DNA of 64,000 nt, from NCBI RefSeq assembly GCF_029227915.1, contig NC_079877.1:15920851-15984850 (forward strand), read 5' to 3'. Numbering within the stretch: the stretch's first letter is position 1; each line of letters begins with the position of its first letter. Both the position numbers and the translations under genes were made by a program. Below are positions 3,630 through 59,336 of the stretch, in pieces. This DNA is from Hydractinia symbiolongicarpus. Taxonomy: Eukaryota; Cnidaria; Hydrozoa; Anthoathecata; Hydractiniidae. Below the pieces are notes generated by a model. It had not been told where the DNA came from and searched no databases. It saw only the letters and a list, made by a program, of their open reading frames with translations.

Positions 3630-6600
3630 CTACTGCTTCTTTTCAATTTGAAAGGACAAGTCAAATGTATGATTATTTCGAAGGAAGCAGTTGCATATAT
3701 CTGGCTCATTAAATTGTGTTATGTCGACTTTAAAACCATCTACGTCAAAATAGAAGTCCAAAAATTTATTTTGATAACGTAAGGCAAGGACACTCGAGCT
3801 GATATTGTACGGGTGATTAAGGTGGATATCCGTCCTGAAAAAAGGAATCATTCCGTTATGATGTTTAGCAATCAGAATTTCCATGAACTTTTTCTTTTGT
3901 GCAATGTGAACTTCTGTTCTGTTTTTGTATTCAAGAATAAATGATCCATATATACATCTGGTCCAATTCATGAAATGCAACGAATGGATCGTTTCTTTAC
4001 TCCCACAGCCATCAGCTAATCGAAAGAACGTTTCTTTACTCATGTAATCAGCAAGATTATTCCAGTCTACATGATCAGCTTTAAATGACTTGATTTCTTT
4101 CATGGCTTCCTTATTGTTAAATAAAACCGTTTTGACATAAAACGTGCATTCGACTTTCCTTTCAGCTACTAATCCGATAAAAGTATCAAGTTTGTACTTG
4201 TAATATTTCGTAATGCTCTCAAAAATGTTTCCGTTATATGGAAAGAATTTGTTAAGGCTAAAAGAAGCAAACAATGTATCTGCAGACAGTTGGTATTCTT
4301 CAAATGGAGCTGTTCTGCAGAACATAGTAACGTTACCATGGTTTTGCATATTTACTTGACCAAATATTTGTCCTGTGAACTGATACCAACAGAAGGCAAC
4401 GCGATCTTCTTTTCTTAACAAATTACCAACAGGCATAAACGAATTCTGTGAGACGTACCCTTCTCTCCACATTGTTCTGGCTTCACCGAGTTGCAACTTC
4501 ACCGTCATCCAGTATTCAATCAATGCTCTTACCTCCCTATTTTGAACGGTTGGAATTATATTGCAGCATGTAGCTTTAAACAACTCCAGGGTTTTATCAC
4601 TCCAACCAGTGGAAAACCACACTTCTAAAATTGCATCGTAGCTTGCTTTCATTTTTATCATTTCATAGATAATCAAAGAACGTGCCACACATATTTCGGA
4701 TTGTTCAATTCCAACAAATCTTACCTTATCACCGTCTCCACTGAAATTGCCCATCAAAAGCTCAAGAAGATCAACAAACCCGATATAAACATACTTTTTG
4801 CCAAACTCGAAGCAAGTTTCCCCTACAGCTGAATTTCGCAAAATTTGGTAACGTTGTTTCGGATAACTCTGCAAACTTAAAGAGTTCAGGACATCGCCAG
4901 GGCGAGGACCCATCGCTAACATGTGTAATAAAGCCCGTGAATGTTCACCATATCTTTTTACATACATGTATTTATCCCAAGAAACTTCATCTAATCCAAC
5001 TTCCTGAAAAGCCCATAACTTTTGTTGATTAAAGCAATTTTCTAACAGGCCAAAACCTTCCTTGTCGTACGGATAAGCTTCTTTATATTCCTGATGAAAA
5101 CAAGGAATGTCGAGATCTAACACTTTTCTAAGGTGCGACGGGATACGAGGATAGAAACTTTTCAAGTTAGTTAATAACTGGCTAACTTGTGCTTCACTAG
5201 CTGCCCTGCTATTCAAGAGGTCCTGTTTAATTTTTTCCACACTAACATTGGCTGTTTTCTCATTTTTGTTTTCCCTGCTTTTAGCTTGTCCTTTTTTACT
5301 CTGACAAACATTTTTATGTTGTCTCCAATGTTCGACTTGGCATTCTCTACTGCAGTATAATTTATGTTTACAACGACTACAACAAAATTTTGCTTCTTTT
5401 TCCGAACATGAAAGACAAGTAACAAATTCTGCTGATGGAAATCTAAAGAGAAATTTGACAAGATTTTAATATAATGTATGTATTAAATGTATTAAAAAGT
5501 AATTCAGCTACGAGAAGATAATGCGAATAGCATTTTTTTTTCTTTAAATCTATCGTCGACTAAAACAGCGAGAAATCAGATGTACTATATAAGCACGTGT
5601 CTATTGTCTGCTGTTGCCTATTTTTTTCCCGATCCTTAACCCTATTCGGTCCGGGGGGGGGCGGATTCCGCCCCCCCTGACGGTTTTTTTTTAATAACTC
5701 CTGATTGCTTTCTTATATGGCTATGATACTTACTAAGTTTTAACATTTATCTATTACACACCTGTATGCTAAATTTTTAGGTCCTATACTTTTTAGAGGC
5801 TTTGATATTGGCCATTACTCGAAACTACCCCTAAAATCTCTATGAAATCCTTATAATGGGGAAAATATAATAACTCCTGTTAGGATTATCCTTAGAACTT
5901 GAAACTTGCAACACAACTTTGTTTCATCAAGAAGAATCATTTTGAATAATTTTGACACGTGACTAATCCGATTTCCCGATTTTGTCGGATTTTACCCGAA
6001 AATCGGAAAAAAACGGATTTTCGGGCAATTTTTGGCAATTTTTTATCCGATCCATGTAAAAACCGGAAGATATGTTAAACACATTTTATTTAGCTTTCAG
6101 GAACTTTAAACAGAATGTAAAAATTCGCTCTAGAACAAAAGTAATTATATTTTAAGCAGATAGTGGCATTTTTAACAATTTTCAAGCTTCTGGTGACGTC
6201 ACAGAAAATGTGCTGACGCAAGCAAAAATTTATTGCCGCTATTTTGTTCCTTTTATGACGTACTATAAGTGTGCCAAGTTTGATTCAATTTGAACAATCC
6301 TATGAAAAGTTATTGAGGTCATAGTATGTTCGAAAAACCCCGGACCGAATAGGGTTAAATGAAATTAACAAAACGATATTATTTCTTCCAGGCTGAATAA
6401 AATAAACAAAATACTTTTTAAGAATCTTAATGATTTTTAAACCGGACTTTATCATTTCTACGTTTATCATCATGCTGGCGCTTCAAACTTAAAAAGTTAT
6501 TTAACATATTTTCCGTCAAAACTTCAAAAAATGCCCAAAAATTCGAGAAATAGGAATGATCACGTGATAAAAATTATCAGAATGATTTTTGATGAAATTA

Positions 6601-8599: not shown

Positions 8600-9392
8600 A
8601 CAACTGGGAAGTCTAGTATTGACGCTTCAGGCCAAAATTGGTATTTGTTTTCGACAAAATTTGGCACAGTTAACAAAAATAGTATGCTGAACATAATGGT
8701 GACATAATAATTTTGATTTTTGTCACCTAAATGTCATTTCAGGACAAAATTGGTCCAAAAATTAAAACTACTTTATTTTTAACAAAATTTGGCACAGTAA
8801 ACAAATAAAGTATGCTGAACATGATGGTGACATCAAAATTTTGATTTCTTGTTACCTAAATGTCATTTTAGGCCAAAATTGGTCCAAAAATTAAAACTAC
8901 TTTATTTTTGACTAATTTTGCCACAATTAACAAAAAAAGTATGCTGAACATGATGGTGACATCAAAATTTTGGTTTTTTGCCACCTGAAATGTCATTTTA
9001 GGCCAAAATTGGTCCAAAAATTAAAACTACTTCATTTTCAACAAAATTTGGCAAAGTTAACAAAAAAAGTATGCTGAACATAATGGTGACATCAAAATTT
9101 TGATTTTTGTCACCTAAATGCCATTTTAGGCCAAAATTGGTCCAAAAATTAAAAAAACCACTTCATTTTCGGCTAAATCTGGCACAGTTAACAAATAAAG
9201 TATGCTGAAAATGATGATGGTACAAAAGTTTGGTTTTTGTCACGTAAATGTCATTTCAGGCCAAAATTTATCCAAAAATTAAAACTGCTTTATTTTCGAC
9301 AAAAATTGACACAGTTAATAAAAAAATTATGCTGAAAATGATGGTCACATCAAAATTTTGATTTTTTGTCAACTAATGCCGTTTAAGACCAT
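8600..9392. repeat. Tandem array, six ~128-bp satellite units
   Basis: The marker TATGCTGAA recurs at 8683, 8811, 8940, 9070, 9201 and 9328, giving spacings of 128, 129, 130, 131 and 127. Each unit contains GGCCAAAATTGGTCC or a variant, then an A/T-rich stretch with TTTGGCACAGTTAAC, then TGATGGTGACATCAAAAT. Units differ by a modest number of substitutions and small indels. The array lies upstream of MYND copy 1 and has no counterpart upstream of copy 2. Confidence 0.9.
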
Positions 9393-14719: not shown

Positions 14720-17700
14720 TTAGTGTTGCTTTTCGATTTGAAAGCTCAAATTAAAAGTGAAATTATTTCGACTAAAACAGTTGCACAAGTTTGTTCCGAT
14801 CACTTCCAAAATATCCATTTTGTAGTCTTCCACATCGAAATAAAACTTTAAAAAGTTTTCACGATATTTCAACGAAAGTACTCCGTTACTCAAATTTTTT
14901 GGGGCAGGGAAAGAGACACGCTTTCTGAGAAAGGGTATCAGGCCAGCCTTGTGATTATCTTTCAATATACTTAGAAATATTTTCTTTTGTTCAGTGTGAA
15001 CTTCGAATGGATTTTTATAGTCATAGATATCTGTCCCATAAATAAATCTTCTCCAATTCATAAAATGCATTAAATGGATTGTTTTTTCAGCCCCACAGGC
15101 CTCCGCTAATCGGAAGAACGTTTCTTTATTCATGTAATCAGCAAGATTACTCCAGTCAATACGATGCGGTTGTAATAAGCAGATTTCTTCGATAATTTTC
15201 TTGTTATCCAATGAAACTGAGTTAACATGAAACGTACATTCGACTTTTCCTTCTGCTACTAATTTAACCAAAGCATGAAGTTTCAACCTGTAAAAATTCA
15301 TAAGACTCTCAAAAAAATTTCCATTGTAGATAAACGACTTGCTGATTTTAAAAGACGCCAAGAATGAGTCGGCGGATAGTTCGTAATGTCTGAACTTTCC
15401 TGTTCTACAAAAAGCTGTTACATTACCATGAATTTGCGATTTAACTTGGTCAAACATTTGACCTGTTAGCCTATACCGACAGAAAGCAATGCGATCCTCC
15501 TTTTTTAGTAGAATGCCAGCGGGAGTCATTTTGTAATATGAAACATATCCTGCTCCCCACAATTCTTTTGCCTCAACTAGTGATATTTCAGTCATCATCC
15601 AATACTGAATCAACTCTTTTACTTCTTTATTTTGAACTGTAGGAAGTAAATTGCAGCATGCAGCTTTAAACAACTCCAGGGTTTTATCACTCCAACCAGT
15701 AGAAAACCAAACTTCTAAAATTGCGTCGTAGCTTGCTTTCATTTTAATCATTTCATAGATAATCAAAGAACGTGCCACACATATTTCGGATTGTTCAATT
15801 CCAACAAATCTTACTTTATCACCGTCCCCACTGAAATTGCCCATCATAAGCTCAAGAAGATCAACAAATCCGATATAAACATAGTTCTTACCAAAGTTGA
15901 AACTCTTTTCCACTATCGGAGAATTCCGCCATATCTGATAACGCTCTTTGGGGTATGTACCAAAACTAAGGTTTTCCAGAACATCACCAATTTGGGGATT
16001 ACTTGTCAACATTTCTAATAAACGCGGCGAGAACTCACGATATTTCTCCACGTACATTTCTGTGTCCCATATCTTTTCATGCATTGCTATCTCATCAAAG
16101 CCCCATGACTTTTGCTCATTAAAACAATCCTCCAGAAAATCAAAATGTTCTTTCTCTAGTGGAAAAACTTCTTGATATTCACAATGAAAATTAGGGACGT
16201 GAATATCAATTATCTTTTTCATTTGATTCGATAATAAAAGAAATGATTCTTCTATCACAGACCATTGAAATCGTCCTACATTGCTTTTTCCACTAACTGA
16301 AAGCCCTTTTAAACGCTTTTCCAAGCTGAGATCTTCTCCTTCTTCAGTGTTTCGATGTTTAAAACTGTTTTGGGCTTTACCGCTGCAGACCTTTTTATGT
16401 TGATTCCAGTGGTTCGCTTGGCATTTTTTACCACAGTATAATCGACGTTTACAACGACTACAACGGAATCTTGCTTCTATTGCAGAGCATGAAAGACATG
16501 TAATGAAGTCTTTTGACACAAACCTAAATTGAAATTATATTTTAGTAAATAAGAATGATGAGATATCAAAATCTTTTAAACTGTAGTACACTGCAGCTTT
16601 GCCAATAAACAACATGTTTGCTAAAGTTTCCCATGTGGATAACTGTCCCGTAATATAAAAATTAAACATGACTCTAAATTTATATTCCCTTTCTCAAAGA
16701 GAAGCGAGAGGGAATTAAATCTGTCTACAGGCGAAAATGTGTGTGATAATTTATGAGCCCAACATTTTATTATGTCTCTTCGACCGCTGTTGCTACAGTT
16801 CTAAGACTTTTTAAAAAATAGAAATATAGCACCACCTGTTTTTGGAACAATTAAAACCTACATTTAACTTGGTCAATGTACCATGTCACAGTGAAGTGTG
16901 TATTATTTATATTTACGAATAATTTCGATGCAACGCCCCCCTTTTTTGACATAAATATTCTTTCTGAATATCTTGGAATATCTCAAATATCGATCGAATT
17001 GTTCCCAAAACATTTTGTTGTTGGTCATTGTTGCATTTTCGACAAATTTATAACAAAAACATTGATCATTTTTTGCCAGTTATTACTTTGTTAAGTTCTG
17101 CATGACCTAATAAACCCGCCCGATCTGAAATGAATTGGGTGACTCAGTTTTGCAAAATTGGTCCTAAGTGTACCCTGGTTACGCACACAGAAGATGACTT
17201 CAGTTATTTCAAATCGCCTCCAAGTTATTCAGCCTAAAATTTGTCATAATCTTAATAATATTTCGAGCAAAAAAATTCTTCTAGCAAATAACTCGAAGAA
17301 TAATCTCTACAAATAAAAGCGCTTTATTATTGACAAGTATAAACCAAAAAAAATAAAAAAATTTCAGTACACGACAACTGATATCCTTTCTTCAAACATG
17401 GATAAAAGAAATAATAAACTTAGAGCAGTAAATTTTTGTGCTTTATTTTGTTTATTTTTGTTGCAATTTTCATATTATTTCATTTCTTAAAGTTTCAACA
17501 GTAGGCATGTCGCAGTTTTTTCTTTTTTCTTTTCACAATGTTGCTTTATCAGTAATTTATACGTCTTCTGATTGGACAAAATATTTTCTTTTCGCGATTT
17601 TAAATACGTGAATCTTTCTACTCACTCTCGAAGAGGACGAAAATATGTTGGGATAATGCTGAGGATTCTTTCTGTTCGAACTTTTCTGAACAAAAGGGGG

Positions 17701-46567: not shown

Positions 46568-48986
46568 TTGGTGAACTTAAGAAAAAAAAATATTAACAAT
46601 GATGGAATCAATATAACTCTGTTCACTGTTGTTGATGTTTCTTCAGATACTGTTGTTTGTGATAGTGCATTGTCCAATGCACCAGACACAACTACTAGTC
46701 ATCCTCTGTGTTCATCTTTAAACTATCCTCAAACTTATTTTGATGTCTCAGATTACACAGATAAAGTTTTTCAAATAAAGGATGATCCATTAAAAGTTCA
46801 TGAACTTATCCAAAATGTTTATAAACCTGATCATTCTTATAAATTTCCGAAAACAAATAGGTCTTTTCGTTTTGAGTGGTTAACAAAGTTTTCCTGGTTA
46901 TGTTATTCACCCAAGGCTGATGGAGCTTATTGTCTGCCATGTGTTTTGTTTGGACACAAGTTTTCTTCCAAATTAAGTAAAATTAAAAAACTGTTTTCTG
47001 AAACTTTTAAGTACTGGCCTGATGCTTGTGCCAACTTTGTGAAACATGAGTCAAGTACTGGCCTTCATGCTTACACATCTGCTACGTTTACTAGTTTTAT
47101 GGCTAACTATTTTGGTAATTCTCAGCCGATTGATGTGCTTCTTGATGCTAACCATGAGAAGAAAATTACTGAGAACAGAAAGAAATTGATACCAATTGTT
47201 CAGGCCATTATTTACTCTGGTAGACAAGGGCATGCTTTAAGAGGTCACCGTGATGACTCACAATATCATGGTGAATTAGAAGAATTTTTTGGTGGTCGGG
47301 TAGGAAATTTTGTTGAACTTTTGAATTTTAGAGTACAAGGTGGAGATACAGCTCTTGCTGACCATCTTAAAACTTGTCCCAAAAATGCTACATACATTTC
47401 TAAAACTACCCAGAATGAATTAACCAACTGTTGTGGATCTGTAATTTTGGATGAAATAATCCAAGAAGTAAAATCAAACACTTTCTTTTCTATTCTGGCA
47501 GACGAAGCTGCTGATTTATCTAATAAAGAGCAAATGTCCTTAGTTTTACGTTTTGTTGACAGTAATTTGAATATACGTGAGGAGTTTGTTCAATATATTC
47601 ATTGTGATGAGGGGCTGGCAGGTAAAGACTTGAAGTCTGTTCTCTTAAAGTCACTTCATAACCTGACTTTAAATATTAAGAACTGTAAATATTAAGAACT
47701 GTCGGGGTCAAGCATATGATGGTGCAGGTGCTGTTGCTGGGTATAAGAATGGACTTTCTGTCCATATTCTTAATTTAAATAAAAAGGCTATATATGTTCA
47801 TTGCAACAGTCATCGTTTAAATTTAGCAGTTGGAAAATCTTGTACAATCAGCTTAGTTGCCCATGTGATGGCTAAAATAAAACACATTTCCTATTTCTTT
47901 TACTATTCTCAAAAAAGACAGCAATCCCTTATGATTAACATAGATAAATATAGTCCGACTTCTAAAAAAACTAAATTAAAGGATGTTTGCCGTACTCGGT
48001 GGGTTGAACGAATTACTGGTTTAGATCTCTTTCAAGAGTTATATGTGCCTATTTATATTACTTTGGAAGAGATGAAATTAAACTTAAATCGACAGTTCAA
48101 TTATGACACATCAAAACAAGCTGTTGGTTTTTTTCACCAAATAGCTAATTTTGAATTTCTTGTCACTCTGGTGATCACAAGGAACGTATTTGACATAACA
48201 CTTCCAGTTACTCAATTACTACAAAATAGAACAATTGATGTTATGGACAGCATAGAGCTTATTCAAACATTAAAAAATGTTCTCCTTCAAACCAGAAATA
48301 ATGTGGAACATTTTCATGATAGGTGGTATGAGGAGGCTCTTTCTCTTTGTGAAAAAGTAGGAATTGTGGAGGAGAAGAAGAGGACTGTTGGAAGGCAAAC
48401 CACAAGAGATAATCATCCTTCTTTTTCAACTTCTGATTACTATAAAATATCAGTTACTAATCCTCTTTTAGACCATTTAAATAGTGAAATGAAGAATCGT
48501 TTTCAACCGTTTTCTCTAAATGCTTATAATGGCCTATGCATTGTTCCAGCAAAAATGGTTTCTTTGATTTCTGGAGGTAAAACAAACTGGAAGGAGAAAT
48601 TCAAGTCTTTTGTCTCTTTCTATGAAAATGACCTTCCAAATATACTTGGGCTTAATGCTGAATTAGAAATTTGGGAGAAGTATTGGATTGATTTTAAAGG
48701 AAATAGACCCCAAACTATTGCTCAAACGTTGAAGTCTATTAATCTAAATGTCTTTGTTAATTTGCATGTGGCCCTAAGAATTTTAGCCACTATTCCTGTC
48801 ACCACATGTGAATGTGAACGCTCTTTCTCTGCTATGAGAAAACTTAAAAATTATACTCGCACTACTATGGTATCTGAACGCCTCAACGGGCTAGCGCTTA
48901 TGTATATTCACAAAGAAATAGTGCCAGATGTTGATAAAGTTTTAAATAAATTTGCTAAAGATAAAAGAAGACTTGAATTAATATAA
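46568..48986 (+). pseudogene. hAT transposase (TTF zinc finger / DUF4371 type), frameshifted
   Basis: Two frames make one hAT transposase. Part 1 (to 47695) has a TTF-type finger (RFEWLTKFSWLCYSPKADGA, then YCLPCVLFG) and a DUF4371-like block with ILADEAADLSNKEQMSLVLR, an RNase H-fold catalytic segment. Part 2 starts after the shift with RGQAYDGAGAVAGYKNG and continues HCNSHRLNLAVG, CRTRWVERITGLDLF. It ends in the hAT dimerisation motif (TCECERSFSAMRKLKNY..RLNGLALMYIH). The break is a 16-bp direct duplication of AAATATTAAGAACTGT at about 47664-47695, after which the frame meets TAA. The first ATG is well inside and the frame opens with TTG, so the true start is lost or spliced. The protein would cut and rejoin DNA in the nucleus. 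Confidence 0.85.
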
Positions 48987-49130
48987 ATTTTTCCACTATA
49001 CAATCTAGAACAAATTAATGACAAAATAAATAAATAATTAAATCTTACCCACTCCTAATTGAAAAAAATAGTAATCATTTATATAAAATAAATTCCCTTT
49101 CCTCTTGTTTACGTTGTGTCGTTATCTTTC

Positions 49131-49294
49131 TGCAGGTTCAGCTTGCTCCGGCTGATAGTACCTGTTCTAGGAGCCCCCTGTCAGGGGCTTTAATAACTTT
49201 CTATTTTTATATCAATTCCTTTTCTTTAACCCCCCCCCCCCCCCCTTTTCCGAGTTCGGCTTGCTCCAGCTGATAGCACTCGGTTGATTGGAGC
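49131..49294 (+). repeat. ~120-nt tandem monomers next to the hammerhead
   Basis: TTCAGCTTGCTCCGGCTGAT (49135) and TTCGGCTTGCTCCAGCTGAT (49254) open two related monomers. Both continue through a GATAG(T/C)AC segment to GGAGC and then a CTGTC. The CTGTC cytosines are at 49182 and 49302, 120 nt apart. The first copy then diverges into GGGGCTTTAATAAC and a long C run. The second continues as a complete hammerhead. The layout suggests a remnant tandem retrozyme-like unit. Confidence 0.6.
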
Positions 49295-49382
49295 AGACTG
49301 TCCATGTCTGGAATAGCTAATATTACGTTATTAGCTGTTTCCTAGGCATGCTGACGAGCCCTGATATTGGGCGAAACAATCT
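49295..49382 (+). ncRNA. Hammerhead self-cleaving ribozyme (type III order)
   Basis: All core positions of a hammerhead are present. Cleavage site: GUC, with the cut after C49302. Stem I: CATGTCTGG (49303-49311) pairs with CTAGGCATG (49342-49350), nine pairs including two G-U, and extends into AGCTAATA/TATTAGCT (49315-49322 with 49329-49336). Core: CTGACGA (49351-49357). Stem II: GCCC (49358-49361) with GGGC (49369-49372) and loop TGATATT. GAAA: 49373-49376. Stem III: AGACTGT (49295-49301) with ACAATCT (49376-49382), one C-A mismatch. Such ribozymes process multimeric RNAs of retrozymes, Penelope-like elements and satellites; small hammerhead retrozymes are known in cnidarians. Chance agreement of every core base plus three helices is unlikely. 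Activity is inferred. Confidence 0.85.
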
Positions 49383-49555
49383 TAAAATATATGAATTTAA
49401 ACCGTTGTTTTTATTTTTCCTACACTTTTTTGCAACCCTTTACAAGATTGTTTGTTATTTTGCTGTCCATTCGAAACAAAAAACGTCTCTAACAGAGCTA
49501 ATAATTTGGACATTAATTAGGCCGTTTATAGTGCGTAGAGGCTCAAAATAGCGAA

Positions 49556-49702
49556 AGTTTCCGGGGCTGCGCCACAGACCCCCCATGGGGGGCTTACAGC
49601 GCCCCCCATGACCCCCAGCTGTTCTGGGCGCAGCAAATTGCTGCGCTGTTTTTTACTTCGCAAAAAAAGTGACTGACATGTTACAAATGCTGGATCCGCC
49701 CC
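49556..49702 (+). mobile_element. hAT-type element 3' terminus
   Basis: A G/C-rich block (CCCCCCATGGGGGG and GCGCAGCAAATTGCTGCGC hairpins) ends at GCTGGATCCGCCCCTG. This is the inverse of the common hAT terminus CAGGGGCGGATCC. The block resembles 58590..58733. It may be the end of the transposase-bearing element at 46568 or of a separate MITE. No matching 5' end or 8-bp target duplication was found. Confidence 0.5.
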
Positions 49703-50000
49703 TGACTCATTTCACAGATTAAGACCAAAAAAATATACGCGTGGCGATTGAATATGACACGCTGTGTAGGCCATTATATGTTGCAGGGAAATAAATCTGC
49801 GTAGCTTAACATGAGCATTAAATACTCCAGGATTCCCCGTTTAACCCATGGCCCCTCCTAGGAACAATAGGCACGGTATATTCCTTCATAATTGTGAGGC
49901 TCGCCATGTAAAATATGCACATTTATTTATCTATCCGGTTACCGACCGACCCATTAACATTTTTCTCAAGACTGTCGACCAAAAACCTTCTTTGCCCATA

Positions 50001-55003: not shown

Positions 55004-55117
55004 ATGTCATCTTCCTCTTCTGATGTAAGCGATGTTGAATTTAATGAAGATGAAGAATTTGGTTTTTCTCCTTTCATGTTCGAACCGGAACGGAGTCAAA
55101 GTGAAGTAGCTACACAG
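55004..55117 (+). pseudogene. N-terminal exon piece of a P2X7-C-like protein
   Basis: The ATG at 55004 opens MSSSSSDVSDVEFNEDEEFG, then FSPFMFEPERSQSEVA. The (I/S)PxxFEPxR phrase matches the N-terminus of the related gene at 32288 (IKPYQFEPKR). The frame runs into CAGGGGCGGATTC, a hAT-type terminus, at 55118. The next recognisable part of the protein appears at 58734. Confidence 0.5.
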
Positions 55118-56966
55118 GGGCGGATTCACACATTAGCGAATTCGGCACTCGCCTAAGGAGAAATTTAGCCTCCCCGCGTCTTCTAGAATCGTTACAAATA
55201 TGTTCCGTTTTCACTTCGCTTTTTTATATTATGTTGTAGCAGTATCTCCTTCACGGTGCTTTGCCGAGCCTGTAAGATTTTTCCTAGTGCTACGGTACCG
55301 GTTTATTATTTTGTCCTATTTCATATTTCAGCCCTTTTCCAATTGACTCCATAGGCTATCGTAAAATCGGTAAAGTCGGCGAGAAGCACATCTCGCCGAC
55401 TATGGAGTGCTTTTCGCCGACTTTAGGTAAATTTACGGCCGACAGAAAGTCCACCTTGCAAGGACAATTGTTTATTTTAACCGTTGACCGTAGCATATGA
55501 CAATCTCGGCAAGATAGGCTAAGATTTCCCTATTTCAATATGTATTTTCTTTTTAAAACACAATTTTTCACAATGCTACAAATGATAAATCTAAATAGAA
55601 TAGGACAATCATTATTCAAATGAAAATAACACATTTTTTATAGCAATAAAAGACAAATAAGAGACAAATTCGCTTAAAAACGATACAAAGTAAATGTGTA
55701 ACAAACGTAAATAAAAATTAGTATAAATGCTAAACTAAATACAATGTACAAAGTATTACAAAGCCAAATTATGAGCAATACTGCGTAGGTATTCCATGAT
55801 ACGACGATTGGGTGTAGTCATCTACGATATGCAAAATTCTGGCGTTATTGCCAACATATCGTCTTCGTCGAGGTGGAGCAGGATGTCCTCAAAGATGTAG
55901 AAGCATCGAAACACGAACAATAGCCACATCTCCTATTTGTATAATAGGCAATATCATCACTTAAACGGCTGTTAGGACGTGTACAAAAAATCAAAAAAGA
56001 AAATTAAAGATCAGATGTCAATTTTTTTCTTTTTTTTGGGGGGGAGGGGGGACAATTCACCAGGGAGAGGGGGGGGGGGCAATTCTCCGAGGGGCAATTC
56101 TCCGGATACCAATGCGTAGAGTCTCTGTAAGAAGCACGCGAAAAAGAAGAAACATTACTGGAAAACATTTATTCCCTGTGTCGCCTGTGATGCAGGACAA
56201 AAGCAGTTTGGCAGAAAAGCAGGCTTAACTCGATGACTACGCTTTCAGGTACATCTGTTTACTTTTAATTCCATTGATCTTTTACAGTAAGATACACAAT
56301 TGCTTTCTATTGCTGTGCTAGCAAGTGTAGTATAAAACTGTTTATAATTTCACTTTTAATAAATTAGAAAAAGCTTTGTTTCAATTTTAAAAGAGTTTTA
56401 TGTTATGTTGTCTTGGGTTTTTTTATTTTATGCGGGCTTACACGTACAGTTTTCTTGTAAAAGAAATCTTTCGAAAAAAAAATTGCAAGCTTTTTACACT
56501 ATATTAATTTTTATTGCGAAATGTTTGTAATCACTTGAGTCATGGTGTAACTCAGGTGCCCTGGGTCAATCTAATACAAAAAAAAAAGTGAAAAATCTGC
56601 ACTTTTTTTATTATTCACTGGAAATATTACTTCAAATAAAACTTTTTTTACATTTCTTTTTTTTCCTCTGCTGTTGGCGTATATGGTGCCTGTCTGTTGC
56701 AAAATCTACGCGCTGCATCGAATTTTGTTTGTAAAATGATGTATCTTCGTTTAGAAGATACAAAACGTCTAACGCAAAGTACGCCATGTGATATAGTCAG
56801 GATGTCGGCATCCTTTAAAAAAATTTTTAGAAGAAAAATCTTTTACCAACATAGTTAGTAAAGAAATCGCCTTTCGAAAGGTTTTCAAAACAGGTGGTAA
56901 ATGCTTTTGAAAAGTTTTAAAATATTTCGAAATGCTCCTTTCACTTTCTTTCGAAAGATTTCTTTA

Positions 56967-57000
56967 ACAAGAAAATTGTACACACGTACAATTTTCTTGT
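56967..57000. repeat. Perfect 15-bp hairpin
   Basis: ACAAGAAAATTGTAC and its exact inverse are separated by ACAC. There is no ORF support nearby. It could be the remains of a foldback element. Confidence 0.75.
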
Positions 57001-58018
57001 CCGCCTTAAGTAACAATACGTTTTATAACATCACAATAAATCGAATAGCTAGCCAGCTACCTTTTGTAGCTAGTAAAGGTGTTATGTATATAACAATTTG
57101 TTGACTTCGTAACAACTTTGTATATTCACTTTTGTAGATTCAAAGCTTCTGGCAGTAGACACTTTCCAAACGATTTTTTAACATGTCACAAGGCCAAGAA
57201 GGAGAACACTAGTTTTGGGAGGAAGACTTTGACAAGACTTTATGATGTTTTGGTGTAAAATCTCGAGCCTCGTATCGAAATAATTCCTGGAAATGTTGCT
57301 AATTATATACAATTCGAATAAGAAAAAGGCATGGCTTTATTTAATGGGTGAAATGGCAATGTTTTTAACATTTGCACTAAAGAAGTTGTAATGCTGATAG
57401 ACGTGAAAACTGTTTGTGATTCTACCAACATGGCAAACATGACTTAGTATATATAATACTTATCACAACCCTATCCAGATGGACACAAAAACGTGTAATA
57501 ATGTAGTTAACGATATTTGTTCTTAAATGATTTTTTTTGTTAAAAATTTCAACTATTTATAGTAATTATTGCATAACAGCTAAAAGGTATTTTGAAGTTT
57601 GATTCAACACTTTAAGAGTCCGAGCCAGAAATGGTGACCGAAAAAAAAGTGTTTTTCTTGCTATTAGGCTAATAGGGCTAAATGTTTTTTGACTGAATGT
57701 TGTTCTAAATCAGTTTTCATTCTTTCGCTTTTGTAGGTTTCTGTGTTGTAAAGGTGTTTTTACTTATCTACATAATCTTGCCATTTTTAATTTATTGTAT
57801 TTATCTGCTGCTGTTTATGTTGTTGTTGCTATGATATAATAATACAAATAAAGTCTACTTACATATGCATTTTTGTGTTGTTGTTTTTTTCTTTTTTTTC
57901 TTTCAGGCCTTCTTTTTCATGCTATTAAATATTTTGCATAGAATAACATGAAAATTTTTTATTAGCAATGTATACATTATTGAATTACAAGAATTATATA
58001 CCTTATCGGGGGAAAAAA

Positions 58019-58345
58019 AGTCGGGGAAAAGTGACTAAATTTTTTGAAAGTGACTTAATTTTTTTCCCGACCAAAAATTCCCTTGATTATTTTTTACCCG
58101 ACTAGTACTTTTACCCGAGTTTTTATACCCGACTGAGAATTTTTGTACTTATTCTCGTAGTTGTTTTAGTATAAAAAACATACATGGAAAAATAAATAAA
58201 AATTGATTCAAATTTCCTTGTGAGGTTTTCTACAGAAATATTAAAATATAGTCGGGGAAAAATGACTTATTTTTCAAAAGTGACTTAATTTTTCCCCGAC
58301 TAAATTTTAACACGACAAAATTTTTCCCCGTCTTTTTTACGGAAT
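58019..58345. repeat. AGTCGGGGAAAA foldback repeats
   Basis: AGTCGGGGAAAAGTGACT, then AAAGTGACTTAATTTT, then CCCGAC occur in an inverted arrangement at 58019-58075. The pattern repeats at 58250-58305, with extra TACCCGACT phrases between. Each copy can fold into a hairpin. Confidence 0.6.
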
Positions 58346-58733
58346 CTAGTTTCCGAAAATTTATAGTCTCAAAAGCTATTATATTCACCCACAATTTGCT
58401 AAAAAAATTTTTGAATGTGGAAGAAAGAAGAAGTTTTGCTGGCTAGCTAATTTTAGCCCTAATCCTTCTGATAATATTATTTGGCTTTCATAAAGAATTT
58501 TATGATTGTTTTTTTTTTCAAATAACATGTAAGAAATGGACCTGTAGAGGTCCTGTCTGCTGTATTTTAGAGTGCTAAAATAGGTTAATAAGCTAAAGAT
58601 TCTGGGGCGAAGCCCCAGATCCAACTTGGGGGCCTTACAGCAGGGTTCTAGGGGGGCGCTGGGCTGGGCTACGCGCGTGGGCTTCGCTTCGCAATTCCGG
58701 CTGAGGAGAAAAAAATCCTGTATCTGCCCTTGA

Positions 58734-59336
58734 CGTTGGTGCTAAAAACTGCAATGTTGAAGCTGGAAATCGTGTTGGAAATGTTGCGTGGTGCCAGTGC
58801 AGAAAGTGTAAAAGTATGGTCACTGAAACGGAAAGTTTATGTTGTCGTGATAATAATGATATACCAGACGGTCATTTTCAAGGTTTCTGTTGATTAAAAT
58901 ATCTTCTTATCGTGTATTTTACTTCCTTGTTTGCTACAGCAATCACTTTCTGTTCAGTCACGACAAAGTTTTAGAAAGCTAAACGTTGTTTATTTACACA
59001 CAGGGGTATGCCTTTTTAAAGATCTTTTTTCTTTTTTCGCTTAGGTCATACGTGTGTTACAAATTCTGATGAATTCAAAATGGTTTGTTTGCTTGAAGCC
59101 GTGCTACGGACAGCACTAGTTGGTATTCACAACATGAGCGGGATTCGTCATGAACTTTGCGACAGATCATATCGGTTTGCTACTTATAAATAATATAAGA
59201 TGGGTGTATGGAAGACTTGGCATAGGTTATCGAAAGCATATACCATCGTGTTGTGTGAGTAATCCGTAATGAATACCCGCAGCCTGATGGGGTATACGTG
59301 CCATACACAGAATCAGGAATGGATTTGGACAAATAA
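58734..59336 (+). pseudogene. P2X7 C-terminal-like zinc protein, C-terminal part, decayed
   Basis: The first block reads NVEAGNRVGNVAWCQCRKCK, then ESLCCRDNNDIPDG (to about 58890). After an intron-like gap and a TTAG acceptor at 59041-59044, the next block reads HTCVTNSDEFKMVCLLEAVL, then RHELCDRSYRFATYK followed by a stop. A shifted frame continues RWVYGRLG..KHIPSCCVSNP and a third frame EYPQPDGVYVPYTESG. The order of cysteine motifs (WCQC, CC, CVT, PSCC) matches the P2X7 C-terminal domain and the locus at 31487..32288. At least two frame breaks make it a pseudogene. It converges with the transposase remnant at 59556. Confidence 0.7.

What the first reader, a model, noticed from the sequence alone, without database searches (positions are those of the whole stretch)
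49295..49382. A complete hammerhead self-cleaving ribozyme
Every invariant core element is present and in order: a GUC cleavage site, CTGACGA, a four-pair stem II and GAAA. Stem I (nine pairs, extended by an eight-pair hairpin) and stem III (six pairs, one mismatch) both close. The apical hairpin of stem I and the loop of stem II could make the tertiary contact that speeds natural hammerheads. Protein annotation would miss it entirely.
Basis: partly seen in the sequence, partly recalled or inferred. Interest (0 to 1): 0.9.

Follow-up and report, generated by a model that had tools for sequence, protein, structure and literature searches.

The report
Self-cutting RNA in hydroid DNA transposons
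The sequence is one slightly damaged copy of a self-cutting RNA (a hammerhead ribozyme) that sits near one end of many copies of a cut-and-paste jumping gene in a hydroid genome, which is curious because such genes need no RNA copy of themselves to move.

Summary
In detail: 49295-49382 (+) has every fixed element of a type III hammerhead in order. Rfam's type III model gives it only 15.5 bits (cut-off 48.5), and this copy folds badly because of one mismatch in stem III. The window's own genome (480.9 Mb; contig lengths point to Hydractinia symbiolongicarpus) settles it. 105 places match the 33-nt 3' half within 3 mismatches; the reversed pattern matches none. In a 40-copy alignment the other 39 have G where the window has A (49379); with G, stem III is 7 perfect pairs and the hammerhead is the minimum-energy fold. 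The motif lies about 200-370 nt inside the right end of CAGGGG-terminated DNA transposons; family A encodes a hAT-type transposase. Sequence families A-E carry it; C, D and E differ strongly from A/B outside it. Family E has a compensatory stem I pair and the permitted alternatives GUA and U7. Upstream, A, C, D and E have a covarying hairpin whose loop can pair with a strand just before the ribozyme (pseudoknot). Related right ends without ribozyme exist. So this is a real hammerhead family in a class II transposon; the window copy is probably weakened. Cleavage and role are inferred, not shown.

The parts
49295..49382 (+). Type III hammerhead ribozyme motif, window copy
   Evidence: 105 places in the genome match its 33-nt 3' half within 3 mismatches
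49300..49302 (+). GUC; predicted cleavage after 49302
   Evidence: 37 of 40 aligned copies keep NUH, CUGANGA and GAAA
49303..49350 (+). Stem I: 7 pairs, bulged U at 49343, 4 pairs, apical hairpin
   Evidence: compensatory A-U to U-A at pair 2 in family E
49351..49357 (+). CTGACGA core (C at position 7)
49358..49372 (+). Stem II, four pairs, loop UGAUAUU
49373..49376 (+). GAAA core
49379..49379 (+). Private substitution (A; G in the other 39 aligned copies) that makes the stem III mismatch
49250..49294 (+). Pseudoknot unit U2 directly upstream: P1, P2, loop UGCUCC, GGAGC 49290-49294
49132..49189 (+). Pseudoknot unit U1, upstream copy, with a hairpin around CUGUC
46568..47695 (+). Transposase, first part (DUF4371)
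47865..48986 (+). Transposase, second part (Dimer_Tnp_hAT), same strand as the ribozyme
49025..49092 (+). AATAAA poly(A)-type signals at 49025, 49029 and 49087, between transposase stop and ribozyme
49551..49704 (+). Transposon right end: GC-rich subterminal part with palindromes, and terminal repeat (CAGGGGCGGATCC on -, 49692-49704)

Best explanation
The window holds one copy of a type III hammerhead family that belongs to CAGGGG-terminated DNA transposons (family A with a hAT-type transposase) in Hydractinia. RNA read through the right end in the transposase sense would fold as hammerhead and cut itself after GU(C/A), leaving an upstream piece that ends just after the pseudoknot unit(s) and a downstream piece. 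Most likely the element uses this to process its own read-through RNA, and the pseudoknot may cap the new 3' end. Shown here: motif, copy number, family-wide fold, one compensatory stem I change, covarying upstream structure, position in the transposon. Inferred: catalysis, transcription, role. The confidence below is for 'a real hammerhead family of these transposons'; for the role I would give about 0.4. The window copy itself is probably slow or inactive.
For: 105 places within 3 mismatches of the 33-nt 3' half, reversed pattern 0. The 40 scored of 154 candidates: 11 over 195-201 positions at 98-100%, 29 from 49292 on at 90-94%. 37 of 40 aligned copies keep NUH, CUGANGA and GAAA; 35 of 40 further loci keep CUGANGA and GAAA. 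Consensus A and B: minimum-energy fold is the hammerhead, stem III probability 0.936; also the fold of representatives C, E, E2 and s187, 6 of 12 with A and B. Families differ where hammerheads may: position 7 C/U, cleavage base C/A, stem I pair 2 A-U to U-A, apical stem I unrelated. The 16-nt 5' strand, not in the search pattern, agrees at 14 (A-E), 15 (A-C) and 13 (A-D) positions, while the DNA downstream to the right end agrees at 207/303 (A-E) and 180/294 (A-C). Queried by family E's right end alone, 10 of the 12 places whose match reaches the ribozyme-side end have a listed ribozyme hit next to it. Upstream unit: five pairs change on both sides with pairing kept, CUCC/GGAG possible in 8 of 8 units tabulated.
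Against: No cleavage or transcript data. AATAAA signals lie before the ribozyme, so the main transposase mRNA may not include it. RF00008 on other families: 23.9, 23.2 and 21.4 bits in 3 of 9 loci, no match at E up to 5 in the other 6. Stem III shows no covariation between families and alignment A4 shows none at all. Among family B copies the core decays as fast as unpaired or other positions, 6/348 against 16/928. 6 of 12 representatives (C2, D, D2, s199, s203, s204) do not have the hammerhead as best fold; family D, alike in the 5 copies read, has G.G at the first stem II pair. One family E-like right end (L221) and two more distant ones (L219, L220) have no ribozyme where expected, so the transposon clade does not need it.
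Confidence: 0.85

Rival explanations
1. The sequence is kept because it works as DNA: hairpin-rich subterminal sequence bound by the transposase. The hammerhead is a former ribozyme, no longer used.
For: The A/B segment starts at 49292 and in 23 of 29 family B copies reaches 49698 or beyond, as expected for DNA needed in cis. AATAAA signals lie upstream. No slower decay of the core among family B copies. Palindromes in the right end.
Against: Families keep core and both helix strands while the DNA between ribozyme and terminus agrees at only 44-68% in all pairs compared but A-B (89%) (partly biased, since 33 of the 44 ribozyme nt compared there were the search pattern; the 5' strand was not). 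Related right ends without it exist.
Confidence: 0.15
2. A retrozyme or viroid-like circular RNA was captured by the transposon and rides along.
For: Cnidarian genomes carry many retrozymes with hammerheads (PMC7229834, passages read); type III hammerheads with long helix I occur in HDV-like RNAs (PMC7936874, passages read). Family B has other DNA upstream of 49292.
Against: 31 of 32 regions of 2.3-2.5 kb hold one CTGACGA and the other none, so no tandem pair. 27 of these 32 show the transposon terminus 3' of the ribozyme, and 6 of 8 loci of C, D and E tested do too; both D loci do not. It could be the ancient origin, not the present state.
Confidence: 0.08
3. Chance resemblance in one window.
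For: In 0.48 Gb about 1.5 matches at the middle threshold are expected by chance (2e-4 per 64 kb). Low Rfam score. Poor fold of this copy: 5.5 kcal/mol above the best fold, against a median of 0.3 and a maximum of 3.8 in 16 phage type III motifs.
Against: Repeat copies with a better ribozyme than the window's, and divergent families that keep it.
Confidence: 0.01

Closest known systems
Type III hammerhead ribozymes of plant retrozymes, viroid-like RNAs and phages (Rfam RF00008)
   Same: Same core, same order of strands, open stem III, four-pair stem II; loop II aligns to the RF00008 consensus.
   Different: Stem I is a 48-58 nt hairpin instead of about 6 pairs and a 6-8 nt loop (PMC7936874, passage); host is an animal DNA transposon; Rfam score under cut-off.
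Atypical type III hammerheads with long helix I in HDV-like RNAs and in termite and fly genomes (PMC7936874, passages read)
   Same: Animal genomes, type III, extra apical hairpin on helix I.
   Different: In the HDV-like ones helix I has 5 pairs and an internal loop with GCCR that pairs with YGGC in the loop of a 6-pair stem II; not seen here. The termite copies are reported as isolated motifs.
Type I hammerheads of metazoan retrozymes, Penelope-like elements and Terminons (PMC7229834, passages read)
   Same: Multi-copy hammerheads in mobile DNA of cnidarians.
   Different: Type I, in tandem repeats or retroelements; here type III, single, in a DNA transposon with terminal inverted repeats.
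Discontinuous hammerhead in the 3' UTR of mammalian Clec2 genes (PMC6155905, its section 7 read)
   Same: Type III with long helix I, downstream of a coding region.
   Different: Helix I of 150-1500 nt in a host gene; no transposon, no pseudoknot reported there.
RNA-stabilising elements (ENE) of plant hAT transposons (recalled; one search listed only one unrelated review)
   Same: Structured RNA near the 3' end of hAT transcripts.
   Different: Triple-helix poly(A) pockets (recalled), not ribozymes.

Membership tests
Hammerhead ribozyme | CUGANGA, GAAA and NUH in order around a three-way junction | tested here: met
   Window; 37 of 40 copies, misses L131, L149, L153
Hammerhead ribozyme | Three helices close with A15.1-U16.1 | tested here: met
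   Stem III 6 of 7 pairs in the window, 7 of 7 in 35 of 40 copies; hammerhead is the MFE of consensus A and B but not of the window copy
Hammerhead ribozyme | Self-cleavage after NUH | not testable with these tools
   No experiment or RNA-end data
Type III hammerhead | Stems I and II closed by loops, stem III open | tested here: met
Rfam RF00008 (Hammerhead_3) | Score at or above the gathering cut-off, 48.5 bits | tested here: not met
   15.5 bits; 23.9, 23.2 and 21.4 in 3 of 9 loci of the families, no match in 6. Control: 3 of 12 phage type III loci pass; 8 hits of 33.3-48.5 bits in 7 of those loci
Fast natural hammerheads | Tertiary contact between stem I and loop II | tested here: inconclusive
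   CCTA near the core in 10 of 12 and loop II TGAYATT in 12 of 12 representatives; no Watson-Crick loop pairing conserved
Metazoan or plant retrozyme | Hammerheads in tandem or in LTRs delimiting a circular RNA | tested here: not met
   One core at most per 2.3-2.5 kb region in 32 of 32 regions; transposon terminus follows in 27 of 32
hAT DNA transposon | hAT transposase with C-terminal dimerisation domain | tested here: met
   PF14291 and PF05699 over cut-off; named relatives are cnidarian
hAT DNA transposon | Terminal inverted repeats and 8-bp target duplication (length recalled) | tested here: inconclusive
   TIR CAGGGGCGGATCC at both ends; of 4 elements with a left TIR seen, 3 have 5 bp (aaaac, aaacg, ctcct) and 1 none; a search for 8-bp copies gave nothing convincing

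The most novel reading that the evidence does not exclude
A class II (cut-and-paste) transposon lineage makes its own RNA 3' ends: a type III hammerhead cuts the sense transcript and one or two covarying pseudoknots just upstream of the cut protect the new end, giving a poly(A)-independent, self-processed transposase RNA, kept across transposon families A, C and E (D has a damaged stem II).
Probability: 0.25. Interest if true: 0.88.

Novelty: new variant of a known kind. Interest (0 to 1): 0.72.

Why it matters
In the papers I read in part, eukaryotic hammerheads of mobile DNA sit mostly in retroelements, where self-cleavage serves an RNA intermediate. A cut-and-paste transposon has none, so a ribozyme kept through the divergence of several families needs another reason, and this gives a clean system to find one. 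It is also a type III hammerhead in a cnidarian, a form those papers place mostly in plants, and it shows that the standard type III model can score ribozymes with a long stem I far below its cut-off.

Tried and rejected
Chance: rejected by the genome copies. Type I reading: no match on the + strand; one weak - strand match (strand coordinate 50594) was not pursued. That GUC belongs to a hairpin of the upstream repeat (CAGAC/GUCUG) was a serious rival while only the window was known; the 40-copy data made the hammerhead the better fold. Rfam on the upstream unit: nothing over cut-off. Short patterns of the module in viral contigs and prokaryote genomes: none; no relative of the transposase in viral contigs. 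RF00008 over the own genome: no hit, 68 of 47,427 candidates scored, and it rang in no control genome. The type I family was not searched (met a busy machine and was not repeated). The wider stem-II-tolerant pattern did not complete, so families with other stem II sequences are uncounted. No left TIR within 3 mismatches in 7 of 11 long regions. A-B divergence of ribozyme (4/91) against the rest (21/310) is too weak to show constraint (30 of 40 copies had a right end that could be used). Dropped rows: L161-L167 repeat L122-L128 and were left out of the 40; upstream units of L198, L203 and L204, decayed or partial, were left out of the 8.

Full report
1. Observation. A descriptor scan of both strands finds only this type III match. 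A conditional simulation on a first-order model of the window expects 0.008 matches per window at loose thresholds, 2e-4 at stem I 7/stem II 4/stem III 6, and 3e-5 at stem I 9. In one window that is unlikely; in a genome of this size 1-2 chance matches at the middle threshold are expected, so the single copy did not decide.

2. Evidence against, from the window alone. No Rfam family reaches its cut-off; RF00008 gives 15.5 bits against 48.5, with another stem I. The best fold pairs UGUC with GACG of the core; stem III pairs have probabilities of 0.07 or less, mean 0.035. Their hammerhead fold lies a median of 0.3 and at most 3.8 kcal/mol above the best fold; the window's lies 5.5 above, with equal padding. 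I gave Rfam 12 of these 16: 3 pass the cut-off. I gave 7 of the other 9 to the E-value search: 8 hits of 33.3-48.5 bits. So the cut-off is harsh, but the window scores far below these.

3. The genome. After many busy answers the window's own genome was searched: 480,894,487 bases, 76 contigs. Proteins that NCBI names Hydractinia symbiolongicarpus lie on contigs of 31,041,000 and 39,956,072 bases (P0003, P0059), the lengths of contigs C11 and C2 here; I take that as the species. The 201-nt query has 154 candidates, of which 40 were scored: 11 match over 195-201 positions at 98-100% (family A, window included) and 29 from query position 63, that is 49292, on at 90-94% (family B). In 8 of 11 family A copies the match runs back into the transposase gene to 48161 or before. 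Family B begins at 49292 in 29 of 29 and reaches 49698 or beyond in 23 of 29; three B loci (L133, L143, L151) also match short stretches elsewhere.

4. The window copy is the odd one. In the 40-copy alignment (seven duplicate fetches left out) the other 39 have G at 49379 (CAG; the window reads CAA), so the family stem III is 7 perfect pairs AGACUGU/ACAGUCU, seen in 35 of 40 copies. 37 of 40 keep NUH, CUGANGA and GAAA; the misses are L131, L149 and L153. Family A and B consensus fold as the hammerhead with stem III probability 0.936. The alignment shows no covariation, copies being too alike, and within family B the core decays like unpaired or other positions, 6/348 against 16/928: single copies drift, as expected of a transposon.

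5. More families. The 33-nt 3' half occurs at 105 places with up to 3 mismatches, reversed pattern 0; 100 places were listed. I read 40 further loci; 35 of 40 keep CUGANGA and GAAA, the misses being L200, L201, L204, L214 and L218. They form families C, D and E besides more B and some singles. Of 12 representatives, A, B, C, E, E2 and s187 have the hammerhead as best fold; C2, D, D2, s199, s203 and s204 do not. Family E has CTGATGA, cleavage base A and stem I CUUG/CAAG in place of CAUG/CAUG, one pair changed on both sides. The apical part of stem I is unrelated between A/B, C/D and E, yet CCTA stands near the core in 10 of 12 (not s199, s204) and loop II is TGA(T/C)ATT in 12 of 12 (loop II was in the search pattern). 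A contact between these two is my inference.

6. Constraint. From ribozyme to right terminus A and E agree at 207 of 303 positions and A and C at 180 of 294, while the 44-nt 3' ribozyme block agrees at 41 and 42. That block is biased, because 33 of its 44 nt were the search pattern. The 16-nt 5' strand was not in the pattern and agrees at 14 (A-E), 15 (A-C) and 13 (A-D) of 16. Queried with family E's right end only (128 candidates, 40 scored), 12 places match up to query position 1-5, the ribozyme side; 10 of 12 have a listed ribozyme hit just upstream. The misses are C7:20725256, where L221 shows other sequence, resembling transposase coding by eye, and C10:7289967, not read (5 of the 105 pattern places are unlisted). 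Of the more distant right ends without a listed hit I read two (L219, L220): no ribozyme in the 283 and 264 nt upstream. So it is a trait of some families, lost or never present in others.

7. Upstream unit. Two copies, U1 and U2, precede the ribozyme. All 17 pairs of P1, P2 and a loop-to-strand helix are kept in both, three with changes on both sides, though 55 of 500 shuffles of only two sequences do as well. In 8 units from A, C, D and E, five pairs of P1 and P2 change on both sides with pairing kept (P1.1, P1.3, P1.4, P2.2, P2.3), and CUCC/GGAG is possible in 8 of 8; P1.6 breaks in 4 of 8, P2.6 in 5 of 8, P1.1 in C2, the fifth loop-strand pair in 5 of 8. Decayed or partial units (L198, L203, L204) were not tabulated. 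A and E have two units; in C and D one was seen; B has other DNA there. No Rfam family reaches its cut-off. GGAGC lies next to stem III in A and 7-8 nt before it in C, D and E.

8. The host element. The transposase parts hit PF14291 and PF05699; relatives that carry an organism name are cnidarian. The right terminus follows the ribozyme in 27 of 32 A and B regions tested and, as ATCCGCCCCTG or near, in 6 of 8 C, D and E loci tested; both D loci lack it. A left CAGGGGCGGATCC was seen in 4 of 11 long regions; three of the four show a 5-bp duplication, giving elements of about 1.6, 2.6 and 8.1 kb. AATAAA at 49025, 49029 and 49087 precedes the module, an argument against a role in the main mRNA.

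9. Literature. PMC7229834 (passages) and PMC6155905 (passages and its section 7) place animal hammerheads mostly as type I in retroelements and type III mostly in plants. PMC7936874 (passages) reports long-helix-I type III motifs in HDV-like RNAs, termites and flies. PMC3088659 (outline, section 5 part 1, section 8) reports many variants, including in a sea anemone. PMC8490949 was seen as passages. I saw no report of this module in the listings for hammerhead with hAT and DNA transposon (7 papers), with terminal inverted repeat (2 papers), with Hydractinia (0 papers) and with DNA transposons and cnidarian (1 paper: PMC6431247, not read). Most listed papers were not read, and subscription papers and preprints are not covered, so this does not show that it is unpublished.

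10. Verdict. A real type III hammerhead family in DNA transposons, with a covarying upstream pseudoknot; the window copy is a probably weakened member. Catalysis and role are inferred.

Noticed in passing
window 55115-58746: A second CAGGGG-type element: left terminus at 55115 and right-end-like sequence near 58591-58746; by eye its text resembles the ribozyme-free copies L219 and L220.
   Followed up: partly
window 46568-48986: The transposase reading frame of this copy is interrupted between 47695 and 47865, near a 16-nt tandem repeat; no left terminus was found for this element.
   Followed up: partly
window 49230-49245: Run of C between the two pseudoknot units, variable in length among family A copies.
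   Followed up: no
L188-L192: Family D is alike in the 5 copies read although its first stem II pair is G.G, so it may have spread with a damaged ribozyme.
   Followed up: partly
window 8644-9391: Tandem array of a 130-bp unit, 5.7 copies.
   Followed up: no
window 3630-5240 and 14720-16519, - strand: Two long related reading frames of 536 and 599 aa that share a long identical stretch, apparently duplicated genes.
   Followed up: no
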